Positions 2,976-64,000 of a stretch of 64,000 nt of DNA are shown here, piece after piece. The DNA comes from Limonium bicolor (lineage: Eukaryota; Streptophyta; Magnoliopsida; Caryophyllales; Plumbaginaceae). The translations under genes and the position numbers were made by a program. The stretch's first letter is position 1. Each line of letters opens with the position of its first letter. The notes under the pieces were generated by a model. The model was not told the origin of the DNA. It did not search any database and saw only the letters and a program-made list of their open reading frames with translations. Location: positions 290,323,533 through 290,387,532 of the forward strand of contig CM041778.1 in NCBI GenBank assembly GCA_023374045.1, read 5' to 3'.

Positions 2976-4216
2976 TGTAGATTCTCGAGACACTACAGGT
3001 CTCCTACGTCACGCTTGTTACTCTTATTACATACTTAGGCCAAAACTCATGGCCCTCAAGCATAGTCTTACTTCCCCGGTTTCGACCCCACTCTGGGTCT
3101 AGCGTGGTGGAAATGTTCAACTAGCTCACGAAACTCTCTCTTAATTCCTAACTCTTTTTACTTAGGTCCGACTACTCTCGGACTACTTACATTCCCATAC
3201 ACTCCTCTCTCGGAGTTATAATTATATTATCTATATTAGTCTAGAAGCATCACTCTCGATGTTTCTATTGACTTTGGGGGCATTACTTAAGTTCGGTTAA
3301 TCTTAGGTTTTAAGAGTTACCCTTACATTTCACTTACTCATACTTTTGGGTATTTTCTTAAATCGGTAAAATCCTCATATAGGAGGCCGACCATGTCTCA
3401 AGGGAGCTACTAATCCCTTAGGTCTCTTTTACCTTCTTTACTAGTTCACGTCTTCGAACTATCTTTAATTCTCTTGAAGGAGGTTCCCTTATCTTTCCAC
3501 TCTCATTTGTTTCGTGGATTGTTTCAATATGGTTTTCTAACCGTTATCGGGTATTTACTCAACCTGTACATCTCCTCACAATCTAGGGAGTTCATATGTT
3601 TGCATTATCGTTATACTTTAACGGATAGTTTGTGTGTTTGCACGTTTTCGTTGTCACAAGCATTGACCCGATCTATGGGTCACTAGCCAAACGTTACTCA
3701 CTACGAGTCGGTCTTTACTCTATGTTAGACCACACCGGCATACAAGTATGTTAGCTCATTCAACATACAACAAGACATACATAATCAAACAATGGATTAT
3801 TTTCATGCTTTAATCTTGATTAAGCCGGCACACAAACACGCAAATCAACGTAACTCGGTTAGCACGCGGAGTATGAGAAAATCATACCTTTCACCGGGGT
3901 TTTTACTCTTACCGTGTCATCTCACCATGCTCGGGTCACGCACGACTTTCTGATAATGTTTCAAACATTACTGTTAATACTAAGATCATACGGTACATAA
4001 TTAAATGCTATTCCCGTACTTTCCCCGTTATCCCGTTATCTCGGTTTTACTTTTATTAATTTGAGTTCTTGCTTCACACTCACTTATAACACTTTCTTAA
4101 ATTTCCTAGGGCCTTAACATGTCACCAAACAAGGCCTTAACATCTTATAACATCATTAACATTCAAACCCTCATCATTTAAAACCTTTAAAACACTCATG
4201 GCATGATTCTGGGGGT

Positions 4217-4397
4217 GGTCCGGGACTTGGTCCTTATCCTAAGTCCCGGACCAATCCATTAGCTAACTCTCGGGTGGAATTCAACACTGGTCCGGGACCT
4301 TGTCCCTATCCCAAGTCCTGGACCAAACACAGACTGCACTCTCGGCCTAAATTCATGGTGTGGTCCGGGACTTTGTCCATGGACTAGGTCCCGGACC
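4217..4397 (-). repeat. Hairpin array in element A LTR (three units)
   Basis: Three units with arms of the type GGTCCGGGACTT and AAGTCCCGGACC around a short loop, spaced about 70-80 bases. The third unit has an extra inner palindrome (GTCCATGGAC). Homologous arrays lie at 21796-21976, 34855-35109 (four units) and 28896-29076. Confidence 0.85.
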
Positions 4398-32799: not shown

Positions 32800-35700
32800 T
32801 GTAAGACCCCAACCGTTAACCTCGTCATTACCTCTTAAACCGTTACTAATTACTCCTACTCACGTAGCGGAACTCCAATTAAAACGAGGGGTGAAACAAT
32901 GCCGTTAGCCACCCATGTGGCTAACCAGGCCTTTCTTACATACCGTAATAGTCTGATGGACTGGAACAACCGAATACACAATACAAATACTTTACTCAAA
33001 TCAATTCTTTACTATACCGAGTCTACAACATATGGATGCCGACAACATATTCGGTCTTACACCTCTTCCAATACATAAGTAATTAAATCTAACTACCCAT
33101 GCAACCCACCGACCCGTCCTACTCTCGAACGGTAACATCTTCGGTGTACCTGAAAAATAAAAACGTTGCCCCTAGGGGCTCAGCTTAACGCTGCATACGA
33201 AATTCGCATACCCCGAGCGCTAACCGGGGTACGCCGACTACTTTTGTCGGATATACATGGAGTTCTTTTTAGTCAAACAAAATGCGTCGTAGCAATACAA
33301 TATATATGTGTATTACTCAAGGAATCTACATCCAATCACGGAACACAATTCCTAACTAACATAACAAGGTTGTTAGTTTTATCAATTTACTCTTAGGCCT
33401 TGAGGGTTATACCTCACTATGCCTCGTTTACTTATTCAGTATCTCACCCGCCCTCTCGGGTTACTTATTCATATACACGCCCATTCTCTTGGGCTACTCA
33501 TTTTATACTCACCCATTCTCTCGGGTTACTTATACACGTTATTTCACCCACACTCTTGGGTTATTCATACCCGTTATCTCACCCACACTCTTGGGTTATT
33601 TATACTCAAGCCATTGTAGATTCTCGAGACACTACAGGTCTCCTACGTCAGGCTTGTTACTCTTAATACATACTTAGGCCAAAACTCATGACCCTCAAGC
33701 ATAGTCTTACTTCCCCGGTTTCGACCCTACTCTGGGTCTAGCATGGTGGGAAGGTTCAACTAGCTCACGAAACTCTCTCTTAGTTCCTCTCTCTTTTTAC
33801 TTAGGTCCGACTACTCTCGGACTACTTACATTCCCATACACTCCTCTCTCGGAGTTATAATTATATTATCTATATTAGTCTAGAAGCATCACTCTCGATG
33901 TTTCTAATGACTTGGGGGGCATCACTTAAGTTCGGTTAATCTTAGGTTTTAAGAGTTACCCTTACGTTTCACTTACTCATACTTTCAGGTATTTTCTTAA
34001 ATCGGTAAAATCCTCATATAGGAGGCCGACCATGTCTCAAGGGGGCTACTAATCCCTTAGGTCTCTTTTACCTTCTTTACTAGTTCACATCTTCGAACTA
34101 TCTTTAATCCTCTTGAAGGAGGTTCCCTTATCTTTCCACTCTCATTTGTTTCGTGGATTGTTTCAATATGGTTTTCTAACCGTTATCGGGTATTTACTCA
34201 ACCCGTACATCTCCTCACATTCTAGGGAGTTCATATGTTTGCATTATCGTTATACTTTAATGGATAGTTTGTGTGTTTGCACGTTTTCGTTGTCACAAGC
34301 ATCGACCCGATCTATGGGTCTCTAGCCAAACGTTACTCACTACGAGTCGGTCTTTACTCTATGTTAGACCACACTGGCATACAAGTATGTTAGCTCATTG
34401 AACATACGACAAGACATACATAATCAAACAATGGATTATTTTCATGCATTAATCTTGATTAAGCCGGCACACAAACACACAAATCAACGTAACTCGGTTA
34501 GCACGCGGAGTATGAGAAAATCATACCTTTCACCGGGGTTTTTACTTCTACCGTGTCATTTCACCATGCTTGGGTCACGCACGACTCTCTGATAATGTTT
34601 CAAACATTATTATTAATACTAAACTCATACGGTACATAATTACATGTTACTCCCGTACCTACCCCGTTATCCCGTTATCTCGGTTTTACTCTTGTTAATT
34701 TGAGTTCTTACTTCACACTCACTTATAACACATTCTTACACTTCTTAGGGCCATAACATGTCACCGAACAAGGCCTTAACACATTATAACACCATTAACA
34801 TTCAAACCCCCATCATTAGAAACCTTTAAAACACTCTCTGTAGGATTCTGGGGGTGGTCCGGGACTTGGTCCTTACCTAAGGTCCCGGAACAATTGTTTT
34901 CCTAACTCTCGGCTGATTTTTGATGGTGGTCCGGGACCTTGTCCCAATCTTAAGTCCCGGACCAATTGAGTACGTAACTCTCGGGTGATTTTAGCAGGTG
35001 GTCTGGGACCTTGTACCAGACTCAAGTCCCGGACCAAACATGGTAGGAAACTCTCGGCATGAATAAAGGGGGTGGTCCGGGACTTTGTCCATGGACTAGG
35101 TCCCGGACCCTGCTACAGATTTTACAAATTTGACAGTTTCTAACTCTGTTCAAGGTCCTCTCCTAGCTCATTGATTACCCAATCTTCACCAACTATAATA
35201 CTCATGTTTTAGCACCTAATTACTCATCTAAACCACCTTAAACTAGTCACCAAGTCACCTCACTAAGCCATGCTTAATTCACTCCAATTCACTTATATTT
35301 CCTAACTTGGTTTTCTTGCTTTCTAATACTCTTGTAACAGATTTGGTGCCCTCTTCTTACCATTCAAACTTCACTCACTAATGTCATTCCTAGCACTCAA
35401 ATGACATTATTTTTACTCCTAACACACTCTTCTTCATGGTTTGGTTTCCAAACCATTAACCACCCACTTAAACCTCTTAGACACACCTAGTCTCTTCCAC
35501 TAAGTGAAACACTCTAGTTCATAATCTCCAAGGAAATTTTGACAGCACTTGGCTACTTTCTATACATTCTCACCACACCATATAAGCACACAAACGCTTC
35601 TTCACCCCTGTTTAATAAAGCACCCACAACTATACACATTTGATTCCCTTTAGCTCACATATGTAACAGTTTACTCTCAAGACTTCTTCCACACTTAAAA

Positions 35701-47551: not shown

Positions 47552-49866
47552 TGAAATACCCCAAACTTAGATATGGTGTTTAAATGATAAACTAAGTTAT
47601 AAGGAGGCTAAATAATTCCTTAGAAACATTAAGAAAACATAAGGAAACACCAAAAGAGCAGTTTAAACAAAAACGTGCTCTAAGCTTGGAAAGACTTGGG
47701 TGAGTACCCAAATATTGTTCTAAGACCTTAGTAATATCCTAATGGTCATTTTAAATCAATTACCAAAGAAAACCAAGCTTGAAAACAAGTTAAAACACAA
47801 AATGTGCTTTAAGGAGTCTTAAAGCACATTTTTGAAAAATTGTCTTGTAAATTGGTTTTGAATGGCTAAATGTCCATCATTACTCTTTAATTAACATGTG
47901 TACTAATTAGTATCACATTAGGAGGTCTAAATCAATGGGAAATCAAAAATTTCACAAATATGTGCCTTGGTTAGTGAATAGTAACCAACTATAGCCTAGT
48001 TTAGTCTTTATGCAATTAAGTCTAATTAATTGGTCAAACAAGACCATGACCAACCTAATTAATATAGGGGGGCCGGTTTTCTAAGGTTGTGACTCACCAT
48101 GAGTAGCCAAATTGTATTAGAAAAGAAGAGGGAAAAGTAAGGAGTTACTATTTACTTTAAGGAAACAAGTATCTCATTTTACTTACCTCTCTCCTCATCT
48201 CTTCATTCCTCACCTTCCCCACCGGTTTTCTTTGCTCTCTTTCTTCTCTCTCACGTAAAACTCAACCTCCATGCTAGCTCCATCTAGCTTTGGTCACTAC
48301 TTGCTCATCTTAGCTCCAAAACCAAAACAAATTACATATTCCTCTTAGTTAGCTCAAGCTCTCCCTTTCTATCTTTTCAAAACTTCAAGAGCTTTGATTT
48401 GGTGCCAAGCCAAACCACCATTAGAGGAGGAAATTCAAGTTTGGAGACTCCATTGGCTTCTCCATTCTCTTAAGGTAAAGAAAGTGTAAGAAAATCTAGG
48501 TTTCCATCACTTTTCTTCTTGACCGAAAATACATACTCATGAGGCTTCATTTTAATGCCTTGTTATAGCTTATTTTCCACTCTTCAAAGGATTGAGGAGG
48601 TCCTTCTTGCTTCATATCCAAGCTTGTCTTGAGAAACCAAGGTAATACAATCACCTTAATACCTTAAAGCACATTTTTAACCTAGGGTTTGTTCCTTAGG
48701 GTTAATGTATTATCTAGTAGTCATTGGAGTCCTTGGATATTGGTTAGAAGATTGGCAAGGAGATATATATATTGGTGACCGAGATTGAGCAAGGAAAAAC
48801 CTAAGGAAGAAAGTTTTTAAAGCCTGTAAAAGAACAAGGTAAATTACTTACCTTAAGGTGTTTTATTGTTTTAGGGAATGGGATTTAGATATGTGATGAG
48901 TTTAGTGTAGAGTTTACATTAGGAAAGGACTATATATAACCTAGGAGAAACAATGATCATGTTTGTGAACTTGTGATTAAAGAGCCAATGAGAAAAGAGA
49001 TAGTTTAAGAATATCAAGGTGAATTACAAGAAGCATTTATTTCAATGGGAGCCTTGTTGTGTGTATTTGCAGGTTAAAGGCAAATATGTGTGGAAATTCA
49101 GTGGTTAAGATTATTGTCATTTAAGGGCCTAAGTGCCAAGCATTTAAGTTTATGCACTATATGATGATGTGTGTAGTTTTGGTGTAAATTGTGTGTTAAG
49201 GTGTTGTGATGAGAATTTGAGTGATATTGGTTGGTTGATGGAGAAAAACCAAGTGTTAGGATGTGCTATATACTAGAGAACCCATGGCAAAATTTAAAGG
49301 AGAACTTAAGTGTTTAAGATGTTCTTAGGGAATCTAATGACTAGGGAAGTACTAGGAAGTTTTAGAGGTTGTCTTGATGAAAAGGGGTGAGATTAAGGTG
49401 TTTAATGAGTTATAATGACTAGGGCATCACCATGGAGGATTTAGGAATCAAGAGAATGTATTTGAGTATTTAGGACTTAGGCAAATGTTGGTAAACAACT
49501 AGGAAGGAAATAATGTGTTGATGGATGGAAGCATAAGCTTGTGAAGGGACTTTAGGTTAATGCATAAAAGAGTTTTAGATGGTGAAAGATGCTTGGGAGA
49601 TGATGTTGTAGTGGTGGGGAAACATTTGGCATAGTGGTTACATTAGGTATGAACCACCACCTAGAAACCTAGTGGAAAATATTACAAGTGTTGGCATGAT
49701 TACAAGGAAAAATGCATAATGATTAAAGTGGATGTTGGTGAGTGATTTAAAGTGTTTAGTGGTTGGCTTAAGGTGTATTTGAGGTGCCAAATGAGGTTAG
49801 AACTTACTAGGATATATGAGGAGAAGTTTGGAGTTAAAAGAGAATTTAGAAACAAGGTTCTGGAGC

Positions 49867-50270
49867 CGACCGACCTTAGGGACCGGACCTGCAAGGTCGG
49901 TCGAGCTCAGTTTACACTGCCGGAGAAAGTTTCTGGAACCGACCGAACTTGGGGACCGGACTTAGAAGTTCGGTCGGGCTTGTATTTTGTGAAGGAATTA
50001 AGTCTCTGGAACGGACCGACCTTGGGACCGGACTTGCAAGGTCGGTCATGCCTAGAATTTTGTGCGGGAATTAGTCTGTGGAATCGACCGAACGTAGGAC
50101 CGGACTTGGCAAGTTCGGTCGGACTTAAATTTCCCACGGGGAAAAACTCTCGGGAATGGACCGACCTTGGGGACCGGACTTGCAAGGTCGGTCGGGGTAG
50201 AATTTTCAAACGGTGATAGGTTCTGGAATGGACCGACCTTGGGTAAGGTCGGTCGGTAAGTTCGGTCGAG
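49867..50270 (+). repeat. Hairpin array in C LTR (six units)
   Basis: Six units with arms CCGACCTT/AAGGTCGG or CCGAACTT/AAGTTCGG around GGGACCGGACTTGC-like loops, spaced about 75-80 bases. Arm variants change together on both sides. Repeated at 60380-60783. Confidence 0.88.
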
Positions 50271-51410
50271 CCTAAAACAAAAAAAAAGAGAAAAATTTTA
50301 AATTCTAAGGATGATGATTGGTATTAGGGTATGCCATTGGTAGGGTAGTAATGATTAGGAACCTAAGAACATAGAGGATTAAGCTAAGATAAGTATAAAC
50401 TTTAATGTTGAAAGTTAAGTTTATAAGATTAAGTGGCAAGGATTTAAGAGGATGTCCAATGGGAATCTTTAGGGACTAAGTGAGTTAAGTAAGGTGCAAA
50501 TAACTAATGGCCTAAGAATGAATCAATGTTTTAGGTTTGTGAATTGGGGCCCCGGAGAAGGTTAACGAACAACGATCGACGGTGAACGGTACAGTCTTTC
50601 TTGTGACCTGCTTGCTAACGAGGTGTCCCTCGGCTTGTGTGCTATCTGTTTAAATGCTATGACTAAGACAAGATAAAGCATGCAACCGGTTATACTTATT
50701 CTCGTTGTGATTGTGTTTATTTTACACTAACCCACGAGACTTGAGAATGCTGCTAACCAAGTTTAGTACTCATTGAGTTAAGGATAAGAAATAAGTATTG
50801 GTGATTGTTGGTTTTACCGTCAGGGTTTAACTAACACTTGATAATTAAGGCTTTCACTAACCATAACTTGGGGTGGGAGTGAGGAATCCGGAATGGTACT
50901 GGCACATGTGTATTGGGGGAGGTCGGTATCTGAATCTGGTCCGACTTCCAAATTAAGACTTGTCATTAGACTCGTCGCCTAGGGTCAATAAACCGACCCG
51001 ACCACCCGGGCTAATGTTTGAGGTGGGAGGCACATTAAGGATGGTGTGGGGGGATCAAGCCTGCATCCCCAACAAATTAAGAAAGGTAGCTTATCGTCGG
51101 ATAGTGCACTGCTACCGGCTAGGGTTAACCAAGCCCTACAAAGATAAGCGACCAATTAAGGGCTAACCAATCTAACAGTGGAGCGGTTGGCAATTTTAAG
51201 GTTAAGGAGATTGTGGATCTAAGGAGTTAAGAACTAACTCACTTATTAAGGGAACGCCAGAGTCGTTCATTTGGTTATGAGCTTTTTATGTGCATTGTGG
51301 TTGTTGGTTTATTGTGTTTCATACTATGCTTATTATGCTAATCAACTTCCATGCTATCGACAATTAGTCGTCGTAGCCCCGTTAGCTTGGGGGCCATGGG
51401 AGGGTCGTAC

Positions 51411-51475
51411 CAGCATTCGTGCTGACCCCCTTTGGGGGCTGTTTTTACACTTGCAGGTAAGAGGCCGATGAAGTC
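51411..51475 (+). other. U5 double stem-loop of C LTR
   Basis: CAGCA-TTCG-TGCTG (51411-51424), CCCCC-TTT-GGGGG (51426-51438), then a TTTTTACACTTGCAG/GTAAGAG stretch that resembles a splice acceptor joined to a donor. Repeated in the 3' LTR near 61920-61970. Confidence 0.78.
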
Positions 51476-51780
51476 AAACCACGAGAGTAGGAGCGGGTAG
51501 CCCTAGGTGGGACTTTATCTTGAGTACGGGTAGCGCCTGTGCACCCGTCAGTTAGTAGTTGAACCTGAGCTTGTGAAATACTGTAAGGTTTTGGAGAATA
51601 CTTTAAACTCGGTTGGTGTATGCATTATGGATATGTGAATGTAAATATTTAAGTAATGGTATTTCTTGTTGGTTAAACCGTAGCAAGGTCCTGGTGATAG
51701 TTATTTCCGCTGCGACGTTTAAGTATTAATTGTTAAGAAGAGATAACCACGACTGGCTTAGGATGGGGTGTTACAAAAAG

Positions 51781-51806
51781 TGGTATCAGAGCGTAGTTAC
51801 ACTCTG
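51781..51806 (+). other. Primer-binding site of element C with overlapping inverted repeat
   Basis: TGGTATCAGAGC (51781-51792) 5 bases after the LTR. CAGAGCGTAGTTACACTCTG (51787-51806) is the same palindrome as at 32681 with one mismatch. Confidence 0.92.
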
Positions 51807-52644
51807 ATCAAGAAATACCGGACATAAGAAACCACCGAGTTAGGATATAAGATAAGGATTAAGTGATGGGTTAAAGGAGTGAACTGTTAATGTGAGTAGA
51901 GTCAGATGACCACTAATAAGCGTGGATCGTCTTTACCGTCTACGGACGTTACAAATTCATTAACCGAAACAGTGGTGGATACGAATCTAATGTGAGTTAT
52001 GCTTGTTCAGATGTCAGGACGTCCTAGAGGAAGCCGAGGTCGCGGCCAGGGCGATGATGCTTCAGGGATACCGGAGGGGCAGACGATCGCAGAGATCGTG
52101 GCTGCTGCATTAGGGCGCATGGGCTATCAGCCTGGTGTGGGTGCACCACCTCCACCGCCACAACCCAAGGAACCAAATTGGGTGAAGAGTCTTGCAGACC
52201 TTCGACCCACACAACTTTAAGGGGGAGACCGATCCCCCAAGCTTGATAGCGTACATCTCCGAGCTGGAGACCAGCCTTTTGAGACCCTTGATGTCCCTGC
52301 TGGGATCAAGGTGCGTCTGGCTGCTTTCATCTGAAGGGGGCGGCAGGCGATGGTGGAAGTGGTGAGGCCGAGCATGTGGCCAATCCAGAGTTCGGCTGGG
52401 AGCATACACCGCCTTGCTACGAGCGAATACTACGCCGCCCATGTCCAGACGAAGAAGTCTTGCAGTTGGATGCGCTTAAGCAGACCACAAATGACGGTAG
52501 ACGAGTATTACACAGAGTTCACCGCCTTGCTCCGTCTTCTGCGAGGTCTTGGGTATTCAGACCAGATACTGGTGGACTGCTTCTATGGCGGGCTTAGCCA
52601 CCACTCCGCAACGGCATGGGGCGACGAGTTATACTGCTTTGCAG

Positions 52645-52748
52645 GTAATAAGAATGATTGAGATTTGAGTAAGTAAATGAGTAAGATATGGTTAAGTGAA
52701 TAAGATTAGTTTGTGAGAAATAAGAGGAACTAATACCTTGGAAAGCAG
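52645..52748 (+). other. Candidate intron 1 in gag
   Basis: CAG/GTAATAAG at the donor, CTAAT as a possible branch point, and GGAAAGCAG/GAG at the acceptor; 104 bases. The equivalent in the second copy (63145-63249) joins codon to codon in phase 0. It is AT-rich and stop-filled, unlike the flanking coding DNA. Confidence 0.6.
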
Positions 52749-52994
52749 GAGTGCTATCATCGCTGCTAAAGTTGAGATAACCGTCTAGCTGAGGGACGAG
52801 GACAATGCCAAGAGAAAGAGTGCTAGAAAGAGTACAGAACACCAAGGGCAAGGTGGGTACAAAAACAGAAGTACCAGCCTCAAGCCTAGAAGAACCAGAA
52901 CAAAAAGGAAAGGAAAAAGGAGAAGGCTAGTGATGAGCCACTGAAACTGACATATGCTTATGCTGCTAAGCCCCTGCGCTCTAGGGCGCCAAAA

Positions 52995-53068
52995 GTATGG
53001 AAATACATTTTGAATAAATAGAATAGTGACAACTTTGAGACACAATCACTGATGTGATGCTTAATCAG
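52995..53068 (+). other. Candidate intron 2 in gag
   Basis: GTATGGAAATAC...GCTTAATCAG, 74 bases. In the second copy (63503-63575) removal keeps the frame in phase 1 between the basic region and the first zinc knuckle. It is short for a plant intron, so less certain. Confidence 0.45.
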
Positions 53069-53406
53069 GTACCGAGACTGGTAAGGAAACCGGAGGTGGC
53101 TACCAACGGCACTACTATTGCCAGAGGTGCAAGGGGGACCACCCGGAGTTGACTGCAGGGGGAATAAGGTGGAGTGTAACTTTGTGGAGTACTCGGGCAC
53201 CGGGCATATGAGTGCTACGGGAACCCGGAGAGTAAGAACTACAAACCCAGTTTTAAGGTTAAGCCAAGACCGATCAGGGATCTGGATTCGACGGTCAGAG
53301 GAGGGGCAGCAACAACTACGGACAAGAACCCACGGGTGACCCAGAAGTCGGGACCCACACTACCTGGTGGACCGGGATGATGAGCCTGAACCCTCATCGA
53401 GGCCAG

Positions 53407-53537
53407 GTACCGCTACAACCACTTAGTAATAAAATTGTCTGTTACCGCATTATCATGCATGTTTGGTGAATAACAAAGTTAAGTAAGAATGAGTTAAGAT
53501 TAGAACTTAAGTAAAATCTAACCTACTACCACTTTAG
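53407..53537 (+). other. Candidate intron 3 joining gag to the AlkB region
   Basis: Donor GCCAG/GTACCG after the zinc knuckles, branch-like CTAAC, pyrimidine-rich end TACTACCACTTTAG/GAGG; 131 bases. Splicing (phase 1) opens the frame into the AlkB region; retention ends Gag at 53425-53427. Confidence 0.55.
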
Positions 53538-54269
53538 GAGGCTTCCACATCTGCTATCCAATACCATTTACACCTAGCCCGGAGAACACCGACATCGAAC
53601 CCATAGACTTTCCAACCGAACAATGTCAGGTTATCCGCCCAGGTATGATTTTTTAAGGGGATACTGACACCCGAAGCACAAATAGCCATCATCAGGAGAT
53701 GCAATCAACTAGGAGTGGGACCGGGGTTTTTACACACCGGAGTACCCAGGGGGAGCAAGGATGAAATTAAAAATGATGAGCTTAGGCAAGGATTGGAATC
53801 GTATGCCAAGAACTACCAAACCATGAGGATGCAAGATGGATTCTTACCACCGGGAATACCCGAAGAGTACCATCCAGTTATTACACAAGTCGTGGAAATC
53901 GCTCAGCAGTTGGAAGTTGAACCGATTCCAGACATTCAGGCAGACATTTGCATCGTAAAACTTCTACGAGAAGGATGGGCGACTTGGACTACACTAGGAT
54001 AAGGACGAGACAACGGAGTCTCTCGAAAGGGGGATACCCGTAGTGTCTTGGTCCATTGGGATGATGCGGAGTTCTTATACGCGAGCAGAAGCGTGCGGAC
54101 CGTGCAAATAAGTTGGTACTTAAGTCTGGAGATGTATTAATTATGGGAGAGTGTCAAGGATGTTATACCATGGGATTAAGAAATCAAGCTGAATACAGCA
54201 CCGTCAGCAGTAATTAATGCGACGCATATGAGACCTGGGAGATTAAACCTAACCTTTAGACAATATTAG
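53538..54269 (+). pseudogene. Captured AlkB-family 2OG/Fe(II) dioxygenase (ALKBH1-like), broken
   Basis: AlkB enzymes use Fe(II) and 2-oxoglutarate to remove methyl groups from nucleic-acid bases. Readable landmarks, in order: CQVIRPGM (ending 53647), QLGVGPG (53706-53726), PPGIPEEYHPVITQVVEIAQ, ADICIV (about 53940), GLH-stop-DKDE (53986-54009, the HxD iron ligands with TAG as the middle codon), DDAEFLY (about 54055), KSGDVLI (about 54125), the distal iron-ligand His (54169-54171) in a YHGIK context, and RPGRLNLTFRQY (54231-54266), which contains the family signature RxNxTxR that binds 2-oxoglutarate; stop at 54267-54269. The order and spacing match plant ALKBH1-like proteins. At least four frameshifts (the first in the T run at 53648-53654) and one nonsense codon make this copy inactive. 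It lies between gag and protease in the same orientation. Likely origin is capture of a host transcript; the substrate (RNA or DNA methyl-adenine or other) is unknown. Confidence 0.88.
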
Positions 54270-54421
54270 TCATGTAATATTAGAATAGAGATGGAGGATG
54301 AGATGTAAGATTGAAGCACATGTTGTAAACAGGATGGTTATGAATAAGATAACAGTGTTGTTCATATAAATTCTACGACTCTTGTTACCATCAATACTCA
54401 TGAAGCTTGTGAAACAATTAG
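54270..54421 (+). other. Spacer between AlkB region and protease, with candidate acceptor
   Basis: AT-rich, stop-filled. It ends in ACAATTAG/GTCATGG (AG at 54420-54421). Joining the 53406 donor exon to 54422 would be phase 1 and in frame with the protease. Confidence 0.4.
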
Positions 54422-54850
54422 GTCATGGACTCGGTACGGAAGGTGCGCTAAGCATACTTACAGAGGCACAGGCCGACGCCTGCGGTACTATCCTCACCGG
54501 CACCTTTCCGATTAATAGGATTGAGGCATCAGTTCTCTTCGACTCAGGGGCCTCGCATACCTTTGTCTCGGCATCATTCGCGAGCAGGTTGGGGCTAGAT
54601 GCTGATGAGCTACCCAACTTTACGGTTACGCTCCCGTCTAAGGAGAAGGTTCGTTGCACTCGTTACTACCGAGGAGCCACTGTCAGAATTAAGGGAGAAG
54701 ACTTTCCAGTCAGTTTTATTGAGTTCAGAGAGCAGGATTTGATGTTATCTTCGGGATGAACTGGTTGGAGCAGCACAAGGGACGTATCCTCTGCGCCGAG
54801 CATAGATTGCTGCTCAGGAGCCCGTCTAGGGTAACAATATCATACCGCCA
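54382..54850 (+). pseudogene. pol: Aspartic protease domain of element C
   Basis: The open stretch 54382-54759 contains the linker TEAQADACGTILTGTF and the active-site motif VLFDSGASHTF (DSG at 54541-54549), typical of Ty3/gypsy proteases. One frameshift near 54740 moves the end of the domain (IFGMNWLEQHKG) to another frame. It would cleave the Gag-Pol polyprotein. It follows the AlkB region and precedes the reverse transcriptase. Confidence 0.88.
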
Positions 54851-54920
54851 GAGGCCGAGAGCCTTCGACTAAGATCATCACCGCCATGGCAATGTATAAG
54901 GAATTGAGGAGAAAGAAGAA

Positions 54921-55860
54921 GTGTACCTCTGCTATGTACAGGACATAGAGAGAGACCCCGAGTTCGACCCCGACTTACCGGTAGTGTCGGAGTTCCCCGA
55001 CTTATTTCCACGGGAACTGCCTGGCATGCCACCCACTCGGGAGGTAGAGTTCACCATTGAGCTGCTACCTGGTACCGGACCGATAGCCAAGGCACCATAC
55101 CGTATGGCTCCGGCGGAAATGACTGAGTTAAAGAACAATTGAAATATTTGTTAGATAAGGGATTTATAAGACCAAGTGTGTCACTATGGGGAGCGCCAGT
55201 CCTCTTCGTGAAGAAGAAGGATGGTAGTCTCCGCCTCTGCATCGACTACAGAGAGCTAAATGCAGTGACAGTGAAGAATAAGTACCCACTACCCCGCATC
55301 GACGATCTGTTCGATCAGTTGAAGGGAGCATCTGTGTTCTCCAAGATTGATCTCAGATCGGGTATCATCAGATAGCCATTAAGGAGGGAGATATTGAGAA
55401 GACGGCATTCCGGACACGATACGGCCACTATGAGTTTACAGTGATGCCGTTCGGTTTATCGAACACCGGCGAAGTTTATGGATCTGATGAACCGCTTGTT
55501 CCGGGAGCAGCTGGACAAGTCGGTAGTTGTGTTTATTGATGACATTTTGATATACTACTAAATCTAAGGTTGAACATGAGGAACATCTGAGGAGAGTATT
55601 GGAAATATTGGGGAGAACCAGCTATATGCTAAGTTCTCCAAATGTGAGTTTTGGCTTGACCAGGTCTCTTTCCTAGGTCATGTCATCTCAGATGCTGGGA
55701 TCTCAGTGGATCCAGCAAGATTGATGCCGTACATACTTGGCCAAGACCAAAGACTGTTACAGACATCAGGAGCTTTCTCGGTCTGGCAGGTTACTACAGG
55801 AGGTTTGTTAGGGATTTCAGCAAGGTCGCGAAACCGATGACCAGTCTGATGAAGAAAGAT
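54921..55860 (+). pseudogene. pol: Reverse transcriptase domain of element C
   Basis: Motifs in order: [76 protein letters not shown], and the catalytic FIDD (55532-55543) in [11 protein letters not shown], then GHVIS and [21 protein letters not shown]. Frameshifts occur near 55138, 55370, 55470 and several later points, so no single frame spans it. The sequence is of the Tekay/Del Ty3/gypsy type. Confidence 0.9.
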
Positions 55861-56310
55861 GCACCGTTCTGTGGATGTTGACTGTGAGAAGTCATTTCAG
55901 AGCTTGAAGGACTCACTGACCACTGCACCGGTTCTGACCATTCAGACGGTACAGAGGGCTTTGAGGTTTATTGTGATGCATCCGGCAGAGGGCTGGGTTG
56001 CGTGCTCATGCAACATGGCAAGGTGGTGGCATATGCCTCATGCCAGTTGAAGAAACATGAGGAGAACACCCCACACATGATTTAGAGCTGGAGCTGTAGT
56101 CTTCGCTTTGAAGATATGGCGCCACTACTTACGGGGTTAATGTGACGATCTACACCGATCATAAGAGTTTGAGATACATATTCACTCAGAAAGTTGAATC
56201 TTCGATAGAGGAGATGGTTAGAGTTTCTGAAAGACTATGACATTGACCTCCAATACAAAGAAGGGAAGGCCAATGTTGTAGCAGACGCCCTGTGCCGTCG
56301 AGCACACTCA
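55861..56310 (+). pseudogene. pol: RNase H domain of element C
   Basis: Follows RT in the usual order. Recognisable pieces in different frames: [28 protein letters not shown], FALKIWRHYL, IYTDHKSLRYIFTQ (about 56148-56192), [22 protein letters not shown]. Several one-base indels break the domain. Confidence 0.85.
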
Positions 56311-57590
56311 CTCCATTCGCTAGTTTCCTTCTCCAGCTTGGTTATGAGGTGCGAGAGGCTCAGAGGACAGATGAGTACATAGAGAGGTCAGACAAGCTGA
56401 TAGATGGTACCTTTGAGGGTCAGAAATACGACTTCAGACTTCATGACGATGATCTGATCAACTTAAGGGCCGATTATGCATACCACGGGGCAACACGGAT
56501 CTGAAAGACCGTATACTACGGGAATCACACTGTTCTTAGTTTCCATCCATCCGGGAGCCTCTAAAATGTATAAAGACATGAAGAGATACTTCTGGTGGTC
56601 GGGGATGAAGACAGATGTCACCGAGTTCGTCTTGAGGTGTCCACATGCCAGAAGGTAAAATTTGAGCACCGACGACCGGCGAATGGTACAGTCGATGCCA
56701 GTTCCGGAGTGGAAGTTCCATGATATCTCCATGGACTTCGTAGTTGGGCTTCCACCTGCTAGGGGAGGTCTCAACATGATATGGGTGATGTGGATCGCCT
56801 TACCAAAGTAGCCCGATTCATACCGATGAAGGCTACTTGGAAGGTGACCAAATTAGCTGAGTTATTGAGAAAGAAATAATGAGACATCACGGGATACCAA
56901 AGACCATAGTGTCAGACAGAGATACCAGATTCCTTTCGAGGTACTGGAGAGCTAATAGAGAAGCGTTGGGTACAGAACTCAAGCTGAGTACCGCGTTCCA
57001 TCCTCAGACAGATGGTCAGACTGAGCGTACTATTCAGACACTCGAGGACATGCTGAGGGCATGTGCCTTAGACTTCCAGGGCAGTTGGATTGACAGACTA
57101 CATCTGATCGAGTTTTCATACAACAACAGCTATCACGCTTCGATCAAGATGGCATCTTTTCAAGCGTTGTACGGTAGACCATGTCGTACACCACTCTGCT
57201 GGGATGAGTCGAGTGAGACGATCATTATAGGACCAGAGTACTTAGAGCAAGTTAAGGCTGAAGTTCAGCAAATCAGGGAGAACATGAAAGCTGCTCAAGA
57301 TAGGCAGAAGTCGTATGCTGATGTTCGACGACGGGACCTGGAGTTCGCAGTGGGCGACCAGGTATTTCGAGTTTCACCGATGAAGGGTATTCAGGTTTGG
57401 CAGAAGGGCAAATTAAGCCCGAAATTGGTTGGTCCTTATGAGATTACGGAGCGGGTGGGCCCGGTTGCTTACAGGTTGAATTTACCTGTTGAGCTGGGTA
57501 AAGTGCATGATGTTTTTCACGTTTCACAGCTAAAGAAATACATGCACCACCCCTCCCATGTGTTAGAACCCGAGAGGTTGACTTTAGAAC
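56311..57590 (+). pseudogene. pol: Integrase of element C
   Basis: The N-terminal zinc-binding region is degraded (SIHPGASKMYKDMKRYFWW near 56540-56610). The core follows: FHDISMDFVVGLPP (about 56720), VDRLTK in a shifted frame near 56790 (first catalytic Asp), then a 264-codon open stretch (56879-57673) with HHGIPKTIVSDRDTRF (second Asp) and AFHPQTDGQTERTIQTLE (catalytic Glu). The GPY/F module (KLSPKLVGPYEITERVGPV, then VFHVSQLKKY) ends it. Target selection in chromoviruses is helped by the following chromodomain. Confidence 0.92.
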
Positions 57591-57765
57591 CAAATATGAG
57601 ATCCGTGGAGACTCCTCAGAGATCTTGGACAGTAAGACTAGGGACAATCGCCACAAGTCAGTGCGACTGGTGAAGGTTCTCTGGTCAAACCAGGATGTCG
57701 AAGAGGCCATGTGGGAATTGGAGGATAAGATGAGGGCGAAGTACCCTTCTTTGTTTACTGACTAG
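57591..57765 (+). pseudogene. pol: C-terminal chromodomain of element C
   Basis: After a frameshift near 57610 the frame reads SVRLVKVLWSNQDVEEAMWE and ends KYPSLFTD, stop 57763-57765. This is the shortened chromodomain typical of plant chromoviruses of the Tekay/Del group, thought to steer integration to heterochromatin. Confidence 0.85.
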
Positions 57766-58060: not shown

Positions 58061-58073
58061 AAGGGGGGTAGAT
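58061..58073 (+). other. Polypurine tract of element C
   Basis: AAGGGGGGTAGAT directly before the LTR start. Confidence 0.93.
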
Positions 58074-61000
58074 TGAAATACCCCAAACTTAGATATGGTG
58101 TTTAAATGATAAACTAAGTTATAATGAGGCTAAATAATGCCTTAGAAACATTAAGAAAACATAAGGAAACACCAAAAGAGCAGTTTAAACAAAAACGTGC
58201 TCTAAACTAGGAGAGACTTGGGTGAGTACCCAAATATTGTTCTAAGACCTTAGGAATATCCTAATGGTCATTTTAAATCAATTACCAAAGAAAACCAAGC
58301 TTGAAAACAAGTTAAAACATAAAATGTGCTTTAAGGAGTCTTAAAGCACATTTTTGAAAAATTGTCTTGTAAATGTGTTTTGAATGGCTAAATTTCCATT
58401 ATTACTCTTTAATTAACATGTGTACTAATTAGTATCACATTAGGAGGTCTAAATCAATGGGAAATCAAAAATTTCACAAATATGTGCCTTGGTTAGTGAA
58501 TAGTAACCAAATAGAGCCTAGTTTAGTCTTTAAGCAATTAAGTCTAATTAATTGGTCAAACAAGACCATGACCAACCTAATTAATAGAGGGGGCCGGTTT
58601 TCTAAGGTTGTGACTCACCATGAGTAGCCAAATGGTATTAGAAAAGAAGAGGGAAAAGTAAGGAGTTACTATTTACTTTAAGGAAACAAGTATCTCATTT
58701 TACTTACCTCTCTCCTCATCTCTTCATTCCTCACCTTCCCACCGGTTTTCTTTGCTCTCTTTCTTCTCTCTCACGTAAAACTCAACCTCCATGCTTGCTC
58801 CATCTAGCTTTGATCACTACTTGCTCATCTTAGCTCCAAAACCAAAACAAATTACATATTCCACTTAGTTAGCTCAGCTCCCTCTTTCTATCTTTTCAAA
58901 ACTTCAAGAGCTTTGATTTGGTGCCAAGCCAAGCCACCATTAGAGGAGGAAATTCAAGTTTGGAGACTCCATTGGCTTCTCCATTCTCTTAAGGTAAAGA
59001 AAGTGTAAGAAAATCTAGGTTTCCATCACTTTTCTTCTTGACCGAAAATACATGCTCATGAGGCTTCATTTTAATGCCTTGTTCTAGCTTATTTTCTACT
59101 CTTCAAAGGATTGAGGAGGTCCTTCTTGCTTCATATCCTAGCTTGTCTTGAGAAACCAAGGTAAAACAATCACCTTAATACCTTAAAGCACATTTTTAAC
59201 CTAGGGTTTGTTCCTTAGGGTTAATGTATTATCTAGTAGTCATTGGAGTCCTTGGATATTGGTTAGAACATTGGCAAGGAGATATATATATTGGTGACCG
59301 AGATTGAGCCAGGAAAAACCTAAGGAAGAAAGTTTTTAAAGCTTGTAAAAGAACAAGGTAAATTACTTACCTTAAGGTGTTTTATTGTTTAAGGGAATGG
59401 GATTTAGATATGTGATGAGTTTAGTGTAGAGTTTACATTAGGAAAGGACTATATATAACCTAGGAGAAACAATGATCATGTTTGTGAACTTGTGATTAAA
59501 GAGCCAATGAGAAAAGGGATAGTTTAAGAATATCAAGGTGAATTACAAGAAGCATTTATTTCAATGGGAGCCTTGTTGTGTGTATTTGCAGGTTAAAGAC
59601 AAATATGTGTGGAAATTCAGTGGTTAAGATTATTGTCATTTAAGGGCCTAAGTGCCAAGCATTTAAGTTTATGCACTATATGATGATGTGTTGTAGTTTT
59701 GGTGTAAATTGTGTGTTAAGGTGTTGTGATGAGAATTTGAGTGATATTGGTTGGTTGATGGAGAAAACCCAAGTGTTAGCATGTGCTATATACTAGAGAA
59801 CCCATGGCAAAATTTAAAGGAGAACTTAAGTGTTTAAGATGTTCTAAGGGAATCTAATGACTAGGGAAGTACTAGGAAGTTTTAGAGGTTGTCTTGATGA
59901 AAAGGGGTGAGATTAAGGTGTTTAATGAGTTATAATGACTAGGGCATCACCATGGAGGATTTAGGAATCAAGAATGTATTTGAGTATTTAGGACTTAGGC
60001 AAATGTTGGTAACAACTAGGAAGGAAATAATGTGTTGATGGATGGAAGCATAAGCTTGTGAAGGGACTTTAGGTTAATGCATAAAAGAGTTTTAGATGGT
60101 GAAAGATGCTTGGGAGATGATGTTGTGTTGGGGAAACATTTGGCATAGTGGTTACATTAGGTATGAACCACCACCTAGAAACCTAGTGGAAAATATTACA
60201 AGTGTTGGTATGATTACAAGGAAAAATGCATAATGATTAAAGTGGATGTTGGTGAGTGATTTAAAGTGTTTAGTGGTTGGCTTAAGGTGTATTTGAGGTG
60301 CCAAATGAGGTTAGAACATACTAGGATATATGAGGAGAAGTTTGGAGTTAAAAGAGAATTTAGAAACAAGTTTCTGGAGCCGACCGACCTTAGGGACCGG
60401 ACCTGCAAGGTCGGTCGAGCTCAGTTTACACTGCCGGAGAAAGTTTCTGGAACCGACCGAACTTGGGGACCGGACTTACAAGTTCGGTCGGGCTTGTATT
60501 TTGTGAAGGAATTAAGTCTCTGGAACGGACCGACCTTGGACCGGACTTGCAAGGTCGGTCATGCCTAGAATTTTGTATGGGAATTAGTCTGTGGAATCGA
60601 CCGAACGTAGGACCGGACTTGGCAAGTTCGGTCGGACTTAAATTTCCCACGGGGAAAAACTCTCGGGAATGGACCGACCTTGGGGAGCGGACTTGCAAGG
60701 TTGGTCGGGGTAGAATTTTCAAACGGTGATAGGTTCTGGAATGGACCGACCTTGGGTAAGGTCGGTCGGTAAGTTCGGTCGAGCCTAAAACAAAAAAAAG
60801 AGAAAAATTTTAAATTCTAAGGATGATGATTGGTATTAGGGTATGCCATTGGTAGGGTAGTAATGATTAGGAACCTAAGAACGTAAGGGATTAAGCTAAG
60901 ATAAGTATAAACTTTAATGTTTAAAGTTAAGTTTATAAGATTAAGTGGCAGGGATTTAAGAGGATGTCCAATGGGAATCTTTGGGACTAAGTGAGTTAAG

Positions 61001-62278
61001 TAAGGTGCAAATAACTAATGGCCTAAGAATGAATCAATGTTTTAGGTTTGTGAATTGGGGCCCCGGAGAAGGTTAACGAACAACGATCGACGGTGAACGG
61101 TACAGTCTTTCTTGTGACCTGCTTGCTAACGAGGTGTCCCTCGGCTTGTGTGCTATCTGTTTAAATGCTATGACTAAGACAAGATAAAGCATGCAAACGG
61201 TTATACTTATTCTCGTTGTGATTGTGTTTATTTTACACTAACCCACGAGACTTGAGAATGCTGCTAACTAAGTTTAGTACTCACTGAGTTAAGGATAAAA
61301 ATAAGTATTGGTGATGTTGGTTTTACCGTCAAGGTTTAACTAACACTTGATAATTAAGGCTTTCACTAACCATAACTTGGGGTGGGAGTGAGGAATCCGG
61401 AATGGTACTGGCACATGTGTATTGGGGGAGGTCGGTATCTGAATCAGGTCCGACTTCCAAATTAAGACTTGTCATTAGACTCGTTGCCTAGGGTCAATAA
61501 ACCGACCCGACCACCCGGGCTACTGTTTGAGGTGGGAGGCACATTAAGGATGGCATGGGGGATCAAGCCTACATCCCCAACAAATTAAGAAAGGTAGCTT
61601 ATCGTCGGATAGTGCACTGCTACCGGCTAGGGTTAACCAAGCCCTACAAAGATAAGCGACCAATTAAGGCTAACCAATCTAATAGTGGAGCGGTTGGCAA
61701 TTATAGGTTAAGGAGATTGTGGATCTAAGGAGTTAAGAACTAACACTCACTTATTAAGGGAACGCCTGAGTCGTTCATTTGGTTATGAGCTTTTTATGTT
61801 CATTGTGGTTGTTGGTTTATTGTGTTTCATACTATGCTTATTATGCTAATCAACTTCCATGCTATCGACAATTAGTCGTCGTAGCCCCGTTAGCTTGGGG
61901 GTCATGGGAGGGTTGTACCAGCATTCGTGCTGACCCCCTTTGGGGGCTGTTTTTACACTTGCAGGTAGGAGGACCGATGAAGCAAAACCACGAGAGTAGG
62001 AGCGGGTAGCCCTATGTGGGACTTATTTTGAGACACGGATAGCGCCTGTGCACCCGTCAGTTAGTTAACCTGAGCTTGTGAAATACTGTAACGTTTTGGA
62101 GAATAACTTAAACTCGGTTGGGTGTATGCATTATGGATATGTGATTGTAAATATTTAAGTATGGTATTTCTTGTTGGTTTTAGACCGTAGCAAGGTCCTG
62201 GTGAAGTTATTTCCGCTGCGACGTTTGTATTAATTTTAAGAAGATATAACCACGAGTGGCTTAGGATGGGGTGTTACA
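58074..62278 (+). repeat. Second LTR of element C (4.2 kb)
   Basis: Nearly identical to 47552-51775, with the hairpin array at 60380-60783 and U5 stem-loops near 61920. It is preceded by a polypurine tract and also followed by a primer site, so it is shared by two units. Confidence 0.93.
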
Positions 62279-62284
62279 ACAAAG

Positions 62285-62295
62285 TGGTATCAAGC
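62285..62295 (+). other. Primer-binding site of second C unit, one base short
   Basis: TGGTATCAAGC, missing one G compared with TGGTATCAGAGC. This loss would weaken priming if real. Confidence 0.8.
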
Positions 62296-63144
62296 GTAGT
62301 TTACACTCTGATCAAGAAATACCGGACATAAGAAACCACCGAGTTAGGATAAGTAAGGATTAAGTGATGGGTTAAAGGAGTGAACTGTTATGTGAGTAGA
62401 GTCAGATGACCACTAATAAGCGTGGATCGTCTTTACCGTCTACGGACGTTACAAATTCCTTAACCGAAACAGTGGTGGATACTAATCTAATGTGAGTTAT
62501 GCTTGTTCAGATTCAGGACGTCCTAGAGGAAGCCGAGTCGCGGCCAGGGCGATGATGCTTCATACCGGAGGGCAGACGATCGCAGAGATCGTGGCTGCCG
62601 CATTAGGGCGCATGGGCTATTAGCCTGGTGTGGTGCACCACCTCCACCGCCACAACCCAGGGAACCAAATTGGGTGAAGAGTCTTGCAGACCTTCGACCC
62701 GCACACTTTAAGGGGGAGACCGATCCCGCCAAGCTTGAGGCGTACATCTCCGAGCTGGAGACCGCCTTTGAGACCCTTGATGTCCCTGCTGGGATCAAGG
62801 TGCGTCTGGCTGCTTTCTATCTGAAGGGGGCGGCAGGCGATTGGTGGAAGCTGGTGAGGGCCGAGCATGTGGCCAATCCAGAGTTCGGCTGGGAGCAGTA
62901 CACCGCCTTGCTACGAGCGAAGTACTACGCCGCCCATGTCCAGACGAAGAAGTGCTTGCAGTTGGATGCGCTTAAGCAGACCGACAAGATGACGGTAGAC
63001 GAGTATTACACAGAGTTCACCGCCTTGCTCCGTCTTCTGCGAGGTCTTGGGTATTCAGACCAGATACTGGTGGACTGCTTCTATGGCGGGCTTAGCCACC
63101 CACTCCGCAACGGCATGGGGGCGACGAGTTATACTTCTTTGCAG

Positions 63145-63249
63145 GTAATAAGAATGATTGAGATTTGAGTAAGTAAATGAGTAAGATATGGTTAAGTGAA
63201 TAAGATTTAGTTTGTGAGAAATAAGAGGAACTAATACCTTGGAAAGCAG
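63145..63249 (+). other. Candidate intron 1, second copy
   Basis: CAG/GTAATAAG donor and AAAGCAG/GAG acceptor, 105 bases. Removing it joins phase-0 codons with no change of frame. Confidence 0.62.
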
Positions 63250-63502
63250 GAGTGCTATCATGTCGCTGCTAAAGTTGAGATAACCGTCTAGCTGAGGGAC
63301 GAGGACAATGCCAAGAGAAAGAGTGCTAGAAAGAGTACAGAACACCAAGGGCAAGGTGGGTACAAGAAACAGAAGTACCAGCCTCAAGCCTAGAAGAACC
63401 AGAACCAAAAAGGAAAGGAGGAAAAGGAGAAGGCTAGTGATGAGCCACTGAAACTGACATATGCTTATGCTGCTAAGCCCCTGCGCTCTAGGGCGCCAAA
63501 GA

Positions 63503-63575
63503 GTATGGAAATACATTTTGAATAAATAAGAAGTTGACAAGTTTGAGACCAATCACTGATGTGATGCTTAATCAG
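63503..63575 (+). other. Candidate intron 2, second copy
   Basis: AAAGA/GTATGG to TTAATCAG/GTACC, 73 bases, phase 1 on both sides, upstream of the first zinc knuckle. Confidence 0.48.
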
Positions 63576-63917
63576 GTACCGAGACTGGTAAGGAAACCGG
63601 AGGTGGCTACCAACGGCACTACTATTGCCAGAGGTGCAAGGGGGACCACCCCGGAGTTGACTGCAGGGGGAATAAGGTGGAGTGTAACTTTTGTGGAGTA
63701 CTCGGGCACCGGGCATATGAGTGCTACGGGAACCCGGAGAGTAAGAACTACAAACCCAGTTTTAAGGTTAAGGCCAAGACCGATCAGGGATCTGGATCCG
63801 ACGGTCAGAGGAGGGGGCAGCAAACTACAGACAAGAACCCACGGGTGACCCAGAAGTCGGGACCCACACTACATATGGTGGACCGGGATGATGAGCCTGA
63901 ACCCTCATCGAGGCCAG

Positions 63918-64000
63918 GTACCGCTACAACCACTTAGTAATAAAATTGTCTGATTACCGCATTATCATGCATGTTTGGTGAATAACAAAGTTAAGTAAGA
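63918..64000 (+). other. Start of candidate intron 3, second copy
   Basis: Same donor as at 53407; the acceptor and the AlkB region of this unit lie outside the window. Confidence 0.5.

What the first reader, a model, noticed from the sequence alone, without database searches (positions are those of the whole stretch)
53538..54269. AlkB-like nucleic-acid demethylase captured by a Tekay/Del LTR retrotransposon, between gag and protease
Seen: HxD context (GLH-stop-DKDE), a distal His, and RPGRLNLTFRQY with the RxNxTxR signature, in the right order and spacing, in the same orientation as gag and pol. Known: AlkB proteins demethylate RNA or DNA bases; AlkB domains occur in some plant RNA viruses, where a role against host methylation has been proposed. 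Inference: the retrotransposon took up a host ALKBH1-like gene, perhaps to remove repressive marks from its RNA or DNA. I know of no established description of this arrangement but cannot search.
Basis: partly seen in the sequence, partly recalled or inferred. Interest (0 to 1): 0.96.

Follow-up and report, generated by a model that had tools for sequence, protein, structure and literature searches.

The report
Retrotransposon carrying its own AlkB demethylase
A jumping-gene family that has spread through what is very likely a plant genome carries, between two of its standard genes, an extra AlkB gene whose sequence bears the mark of natural selection to keep it, and whose enzyme is predicted to strip methyl groups from the element's RNA or DNA.

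Summary
Window 53538-54269 is an AlkB 2OG-Fe(II) dioxygenase, broken in this copy, between gag and protease of a Ty3/gypsy element with a chromodomain. It is a family trait, not an accident. In the window's own 2.92 Gb genome, 41 of 42 loci read have the order gag-AlkB-protease. Of the best 150 Pfam matches, all exceed the AlkB cut-off and 149 have no stop inside. Three subfamilies, 71-73% identical, show dN/dS near 0.10 at dS above 1: purifying selection inside the retroelement. Two full copies have paired LTRs and matching 5-bp flanks. The AlkB is of plant ALKBH1 type, unlike the ALKBH5-type gene published in Phalaenopsis Ogre/Tat elements, so likely a second, independent capture. Recurrent GT-AG segments with matching phases suggest that one gag donor splices either to AlkB or to pol. 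In one subfamily the first Met lies 43 residues inside the AlkB core, so a Gag-AlkB fusion is likely. Splicing, substrate and function are untested. The host donor gene and total copy number were not obtained, because the genome search answered only three times.

The parts
47552..51775 (+). 5' LTR of the element (TG...CA), about 4.2 kb, with a 72-73 bp tandem repeat at 49855-50243
   Evidence: Lies in one 5,975-column match (97% identity, LTR plus start of the internal part) to 58073-64000; ends read from the sequence printed; repeat
51781..51792 (+). Primer binding site TGGTATCAGAGC (initiator-tRNA-Met type; tRNA identity recalled)
   Evidence: Sequence just inside the LTR
52011..53406 (+). 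gag (capsid and zinc knuckle), broken in this copy; the second unit, 62674-63165 and 63572-63934, is more open. Start read by eye
   Evidence: Retrotrans_gag E 1.3e-15 and zf-CCHC E 0.009 (below cut-off) on the second unit
52645..52748 (+). Predicted intron 1 in gag (GT...AG, 70% A+T; phase 0/0 measured in the second unit)
   Evidence: same motif and place in 10 of 10 AlkB-selected loci, lengths 90-95, and L115 (86)
52995..53068 (+). Predicted intron 2 in gag (GT...AG, 69% A+T; phase 1/1 measured in the second unit, 63503-63575)
   Evidence: not sought in other loci
53407..53537 (+). Predicted intron 3: donor CCAG|GTACCG at the 3' end of gag, acceptor just before AlkB
   Evidence: Donor in 33 of 42 loci; acceptor AG in 36 of the 37 where the motif was seen; phases 1 and 1
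53538..54269 (+). AlkB 2OG-Fe(II) dioxygenase exon; broken by frameshifts and a TAG between His and Asp in this copy
   Evidence: open core in 16 of 42 loci
54270..54421 (+). A+T-rich spacer (68%) ending in a predicted alternative 3' splice site TTAG|GT for pol, phase 1
   Evidence: found in 28 of 42 loci by a motif that missed the group B loci
54422..57762 (+). pro-pol: protease, RT, RNase H, integrase, chromodomain; broken in this copy
   Evidence: RVP_2 E 4e-17, RVT_1 1.8e-6 (just under cut-off), RT_RNaseH 2.9e-9, Integrase_H2C2 5.9e-11, Chromo 2e-4 (below cut-off)
58074..62278 (+). Second LTR, shared with the next tandem unit
62279..64000 (+). Second unit of a tandem array, cut by the window end shortly before its AlkB; the array goes on beyond the window
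   Evidence: Protease copies at C3:290377962, 290388485, 290399042, 290409554, loci L084-L087, all with AlkB upstream

Best explanation
In what is likely a plant genome, a chromovirus-type LTR retrotransposon family carries an ALKBH1-type AlkB gene between gag and protease in 41 of 42 loci examined, likely makes it as a Gag-AlkB fusion by alternative splicing, and would use it to remove methyl groups from its own RNA or cDNA. Shown: position, many copies, kept iron-ligand motifs, low dN/dS at dS above 1, recurrent GT-AG segments with matching phases. Inferred: one donor in gag (CCAG|GTA) splices either to the AlkB exon (Gag-AlkB) or past it to the protease (Gag-Pol), while unspliced RNA serves as genome. 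Predicted: Gag would carry the enzyme into the particle with genomic RNA and cDNA, where an ALKBH1/AlkB-type enzyme would clear base methylation (m1A and m3C recalled; 6mA on single strands as for ALKBH1 in PMC10469495) that blocks reverse transcription or marks the element for silencing.
For: AlkB identity. Order gag-AlkB-protease: 10 of 10 AlkB-selected, 29 of 30 protease-selected (the window's own array included), 2 of 2 pattern-found loci. Spread: 150 of 150 scored matches over cut-off, 149 without a stop (the best of 38,325 loose candidates). dN/dS median 0.100 over 54 pairs with dS>1, about 0.16 at dS 0.05-0.4; 7 of 30 protease-selected loci have an open AlkB core, pooled pN/pS 0.21. Mobilised as a unit: L090 and L083 have LTR pairs of 98.4% and 98.7% identity and matching 5-bp flanks. 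Splicing: intron 1 at the same codon in three subfamilies with lengths 86-105, several not multiples of three; phases 0/0, 1/1, 1 to 1, 1 to 1; in L074 and L081 the first Met of the open frame is 43 residues inside the AlkB core, while the exon before the core is constrained between subfamilies.
Against: No RNA or protein data, so no splice has been seen. The window's own copy is dead: AlkB, gag and pol are all broken. 23 of 30 protease-selected loci lack an open AlkB core. Intron 1 was not found by the motif in 3 of 9 stretches (window unit 1, L088, L105), and in L074 and L081 it is 90 long and stop-free, so it could be read through. The exon before the core shows little or no constraint within subfamilies (pN/pS W 1.13, A 0.78, B 0.53, few sites). 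RxNxTxR is strict in 14 of 16 open copies. dN/dS used copies with open frames, nine of 14 picked as best Pfam matches, which lowers dN. L074's printed LTR flanks do not match. Packaging and substrate are inferred from family and position alone.
Confidence: 0.6

Rival explanations
1. AlkB is a functional captured gene but acts in trans on host transcripts or chromatin (for example R-loop 6mA or host silencing RNAs), not on the element's own nucleic acid in the particle.
For: Rice ALKBH1 removes 6mA at R-loops and affects host genes (PMC10469495, abstract and passages). Selection on the gene does not say what the target is.
Against: A predicted fusion to Gag would favour the particle, but that is itself inference.
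Confidence: 0.22
2. AlkB is translated separately from its own start codon or by stop-codon bypass, and the A+T-rich GT...AG segments are just spacers.
For: In 13 of 16 open copies a Met lies within 11 residues of the core start; the gag frame of the second unit runs into a stop just after the donor; intron 1 of subfamily A has no stop.
Against: In L074 and L081 (both of subfamily A) and L111 the first Met lies 43, 43 and 27 residues inside the core; the exon before the core is constrained between subfamilies; intron 1 lengths of 86, 94 and 95 would break the gag frame unless removed.
Confidence: 0.2
3. AlkB is inert cargo: a host gene fragment carried along without function.
For: 23 of 30 protease-selected loci lack an open AlkB core.
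Against: dN/dS about 0.10 at dS above 1, iron-ligand motifs in 16 of 16 open copies, constant position in 41 of 42 loci.
Confidence: 0.03
4. A single host-gene insertion into this one element.
For: None beyond the window alone.
Confidence: 0.01

Closest known systems
Gypsy_Pa_2799 and relatives, Phalaenopsis Ogre/Tat elements with an AlkB ORF2 (PMC9289625)
   Same: Plant Ty3/gypsy LTR retrotransposon, many copies, AlkB domain with cofactor-binding residues kept; there shown to demethylate m6A RNA in vitro.
   Different: There: Ogre/Tat lineage, ALKBH5/9/10-type domain, separate 565-aa ORF2, gag and pol in one ORF, 6.4 kb LTRs. Here: chromodomain element, ALKBH1-type domain, between gag and protease, predicted introns and Gag fusion, 4.2 kb LTRs.
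Plant ALKBH1-type dioxygenases (rice OsALKBH1, PDB 5xeg/5xoi)
   Same: Closest solved sequence and fold of the nearest outside relative P0002: E 2.5e-71, TM 0.93. The FxIC-P motif before the domain is also seen in plant proteins.
   Different: The five related proteins are at best 51-58% identical to the other plant proteins listed; carried by a retroelement; a separate clade, 97/90.
Tekay chromoviruses with 5' additional ORFs (sunflower, PMC11728184, abstract and passages)
   Same: Chromodomain gypsy elements with a conserved extra ORF.
   Different: The Tekay 13-2 aORF protein matched no known domain; the word AlkB does not occur in the main text.
Ogre and EVADE spliced LTR retrotransposons (PMC12786077, passages)
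   Same: Introns used to make subgenomic RNA.
   Different: The review names these two as notable exceptions; the passages shown do not describe short gag introns with an alternative acceptor for a captured enzyme.
AlkB domains of plant RNA viruses (Alphaflexi-, Betaflexi-, Closteroviridae; named in the PMC9289625 discussion)
   Same: A parasite with its own AlkB.
   Different: RNA viruses; not compared here by sequence.

Membership tests
AlkB / 2OG-FeII_Oxy_2 (PF13532) | Pfam match over curated cut-off | tested here: met
   Three intact copies E 9.8e-50 to 7.5e-45; 150 of 150 scored places. The window copy's pieces stay below cut-off.
AlkB / 2OG-FeII_Oxy_2 (PF13532) | HxD...H iron ligands and RxNxTxR | tested here: met
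   HxD 16 of 16, distal His 16 of 16, strict RxNxTxR 14 of 16 open copies; the window copy has a stop between His and Asp.
AlkB / 2OG-FeII_Oxy_2 (PF13532) | Demethylase activity | not testable with these tools
   No assay.
ALKBH1 type rather than ALKBH5/FTO | Nearest relatives are ALKBH1-type | tested here: met
   P0002: 5xeg 2.5e-71, E. coli AlkB 2.5e-22, ALKBH1 chains 2e-11, no ALKBH5 or FTO among 22 sequences at E<=1; Foldseek ALKBH5 from rank 37.
ALKBH1 type rather than ALKBH5/FTO | Donor is the host's own ALKBH1 gene | tested here: inconclusive
   Clade is sister to 36 plant proteins, 97/90; it sits among them in an unresolved fork (94/91); two long bacterial rows drew it to the root. Host gene in G000 not retrieved.
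Chromovirus (Ty3/gypsy) | gag-PR-RT-RH-IN order with chromodomain after IN | tested here: met
   Chromo 21.6 bits, E 2e-4, below the 25.1 cut-off.
Tekay/Del clade | RT phylogeny with reference elements | not tested
Phalaenopsis AlkB-Gypsy family | ALKBH5-type domain in ORF2 of an Ogre/Tat element | tested here: not met
   ALKBH1-type, chromodomain, between gag and protease.
Spliced LTR retrotransposon | GT-AG segments at recurrent positions with consistent phase | tested here: met
   exceptions told in the Against line.
Spliced LTR retrotransposon | Spliced transcripts | not testable with these tools
   No RNA data.

The most novel reading that the evidence does not exclude
A chromovirus evolved an HIV-like splicing scheme in which one gag donor makes either Gag-Pol or a Gag-AlkB fusion, so that a captured ALKBH1-type demethylase is packaged with genomic RNA and cDNA and cleans the template for reverse transcription. 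Together with the orchid case this is convergent arming of plant retrotransposons with nucleic-acid demethylases.
Probability: 0.35. Interest if true: 0.92.

Novelty: new variant of a known kind. Interest (0 to 1): 0.82.

Why it matters
It is likely a second, independent capture of an AlkB enzyme by a plant gypsy element, from a different AlkB subfamily, in a different lineage and place. That would move the orchid finding from curiosity to pattern and suggest that nucleic-acid methylation is a real barrier to plant retrotransposons. The purifying selection suggests that the gene pays for itself. The predicted Gag-AlkB splice makes a direct test possible: look for the junction in RNA and for the enzyme in particles. 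A short-intron, alternatively spliced gag would itself be unusual for plant LTR elements (PMC12786077, passages).

Tried and rejected
Rejected: chance match; single-copy insertion; inert cargo; membership in the orchid family. Led nowhere: IMG/VR scan (3 loci, at most 37% identity); plasmids (50 records with matches under 60% identity); Rfam at gathering scores and tRNA scans of the window (nothing). The scan of prokaryote genomes gave 70 bacterial loci, best 47%, six of them used later as outgroup (four). The host species was not identified; the genome is taken for a plant's because the named best matches of its integrase are plants (best 120 of 7,998 listed). The frameshifts in the window may be decay or assembly error: between the two tandem units MAFFT gives 54 indels, 40 of one base, 76 transitions and 72 transversions; blastn gives 98 mismatches and 67 gap openings; not resolved.

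Limits of counts: the 150 places and the 40 are best-scoring subsets; total copy number was not obtained. The trees use part of the proteins held (36 of 119 outside the five-protein clade) and 10 of the open element copies. The first dN/dS script missed copies on the minus strand and was replaced, whose start motif in turn missed two open copies, L106 and L111 (found); so dN/dS rests on 14 of 16 open copies, with five saturated pairs outside the medians.

Full report
What is in the window. The three frames of 53538-54269 hold, in order, GFHICYP, the start of an AlkB fold, GLH-stop-DKDE, DDAEFLY, KSGDVLIMG, SRMLYHGIKK and RPGRLNLTFRQY-stop. One frame with X at stops matches the rice protein 5xeg at E 4.2e-16; a 112-aa stop-free piece alone at 9.8e-9. 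Eight in-frame pieces compared apart with 125 proteins each had their best hit among five proteins, P0002, P0003, P0009, P0010 and P0011; pieces N and D are short matches. Around it Pfam finds gag and, below cut-off, a zinc knuckle (both on the second tandem unit), protease, RT, RNase H, integrase and a chromodomain below its cut-off. The element lies between LTRs 47552-51775 and 58074-62278; a second unit starts at 62279 and is cut by the window end.

It is a family trait. The genome search answered three times. The window is G000:C3:290323533-290387532 of an unnamed 2.92 Gb assembly. PF13532 gave 150 scored places, all over the cut-off with the full domain, 149 without a stop; these are the best of 38,325 loose candidates. 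DNA of the window's protease found 40 scored copies, all at least 96% identical, and showed that the window's array has at least four units about 10.5 kb apart. A motif search meant for host genes found two more element-type AlkBs, L114 and L115. Of the 42 loci read, gag-AlkB-protease order held in 10 of 10 chosen by AlkB, 29 of 30 chosen by protease, and 2 of 2 found by motif; the exception, L094, showed only protease. AlkB of three intact copies gives Pfam E 7.5e-45 to 9.8e-50, with clear gag, protease and RT hits beside them. L090 and L083 are complete insertions with LTR pairs 98.4% and 98.7% identical (K 0.0093 and 0.0095) and matching flanks AGTGG and ATTAG, read from the printed ends; the printed flanks of L074 do not match and those of the other four fetched copies were not examined. 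With a recalled rate of 1.3e-8 per site per year, K 0.0093 is roughly 0.4 million years.

Selection. Sixteen of the 42 loci have an open AlkB core. Fourteen of them were used for dN/dS; a start motif in the script missed L106 and L111. They fall in three groups: A (L074, L081), B (L075-L079, L082, L083) and W, the window's (L088, L090, L100, L105, L108), 71-73% identical between groups. Nei-Gojobori dN/dS over 91 pairs: 54 with dS above 1, median 0.100 (0.064-0.133); 15 at dS 0.15-0.4, 0.158; 14 at 0.05-0.15, 0.165; 3 below 0.05, 0.321; 5 saturated. Nine of the 14 were picked as best Pfam matches, which biases dN down. Among the 30 loci picked by protease alone, 7 have an open core, median pN/pS 0.22 over 21 pairs, pooled 0.21. 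Protease-RT of nine loci gives median 0.128 over 22 pairs at dS 0.05-0.4, 0.039 for one pair above, and 13 saturated. Both iron-ligand motifs are kept in 16 of 16 open copies, strict RxNxTxR in 14 of 16.

Which AlkB. The nearest relative outside this genome, P0002, matches 5xeg at 2.5e-71, E. coli AlkB at 2.5e-22, ALKBH1 chains at 2e-11, and no ALKBH5 or FTO at E<=1. Its predicted model (pLDDT 91.6) has TM 0.93 to OsALKBH1. Ten element copies and the five ENA/Logan proteins form one clade of 15, sister to 36 plant ALKBH1-like proteins (97/90), rooted on four acidobacterial AlkBs. A tree without the element copies placed the five proteins in an unresolved fork with the plants (94/91), and one with two very long bacterial rows and a 50-aa window piece left them at the root end, parted from the 48 other rows of the ingroup at 100/100. 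So the depth of the capture is uncertain. The five proteins come from unnamed contigs; that they too are element-borne is inferred from their nesting with the genomic copies and, by eye, from the likeness of P0010 to locus L114, which has gag and protease around it.

How it is probably expressed. Three segments in gag or at its end and one after AlkB are 67-70% A+T against 43-54% in flanking coding sequence; the first three begin with GT and all four end in AG. Phases agree: intron 1 0/0, intron 2 1/1, and the third donor, phase 1, fits both the AlkB acceptor at 53538 and the protease acceptor at 54422. I chose these borders while looking for GT and AG, so some agreement is built in. Independent support: groups A, B and W have intron 1 at the same codon with lengths 90, 93-95 and 104-105, and the third donor (33 of 42 loci), AlkB acceptor (36 of 37 where the motif was seen) and protease acceptor (28 of 42, by a motif that misses group B) recur. 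Against it: the intron 1 motif was missed in 3 of 9 stretches, and in group A intron 1 is stop-free and 90 long, so it could be read through. In L074 and L081 the first Met of the open frame is 43 residues inside the AlkB core, in L111 27; in the other 13 open copies a Met lies within 11 residues of the core start. The stretch before the core is constrained between groups (pN/pS 0.29-0.48) but hardly or not within them (B 0.53, A 0.78 from one pair, W 1.13). On balance this favours a Gag-AlkB fusion by splicing. It is a prediction; no RNA was available.

Function. Fusion to Gag would place the enzyme with genomic RNA and cDNA. An ALKBH1/AlkB-type enzyme would be expected to act on m1A or m3C (recalled) or 6mA in single strands (PMC10469495, abstract start and passages). 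Clearing template methylation or repressive marks would help the element. The orchid AlkB of Gypsy_Pa_2799 demethylates m6A RNA in vitro (PMC9289625: outline, parts 1-4 of 7 and the discussion read).

Known or new. The orchid paper screened 121 genomes and reports the 2-ODD domain only in two Phalaenopsis species, in Ogre/Tat elements, ALKBH5-like, in a separate ORF2. I found no paper describing AlkB in a chromovirus or an ALKBH1-type capture in searches of open-licence PMC papers, of which I saw the listings; subscription papers and preprints were not covered, nor supplements. Passages of PMC11728184, PMC6317226 and PMC12786077 describe other extra ORFs; the last says plant LTR elements generally lack introns, with Ogre and EVADE as notable exceptions. 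Hence new variant of a known kind.

Not done. The host's own ALKBH1 genes, a full copy count and a clade assignment against reference elements are missing because the genome search was busy in 32 of 35 counted calls and no reference set was at hand.

Noticed in passing
window 49855-50243 and 60368-60756: A 72-73 bp tandem repeat, about five copies, lies inside each LTR and overlaps the ORF 49752-50216.
   Followed up: no
window 1-37156: A separate nest of repeats: families with copies about 17.6-18.6 kb and 12-13 kb apart, with their own 72-bp tandem repeats at 4216-4378, 21795-21957, 34853-35090.
   Followed up: no
window 53995-53997: A TAG separates the His and Asp of the iron-binding motif in the window's copy.
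   Followed up: partly
L075-L079, L082, L083 (subfamily B): Subfamily B reads SIGDTAVFVY (L083 SIGDTGVFVY) where most open copies of A and W read SIGDDAEFLY, a group-specific change in a core strand.
   Followed up: no
L094: One of 30 protease-selected loci shows neither AlkB nor gag upstream of the protease; truncation and an AlkB-less relative were not told apart.
   Followed up: no
L004-L009: Acidobacterial MAGs encode AlkBs 41-47% identical to the P0002 group over nearly the full length, the best matches in the prokaryote genome scan.
   Followed up: partly
G000:C1:497439466-497470353: Another four AlkB copies spaced about 10.1 kb, an array like the window's.
   Followed up: no
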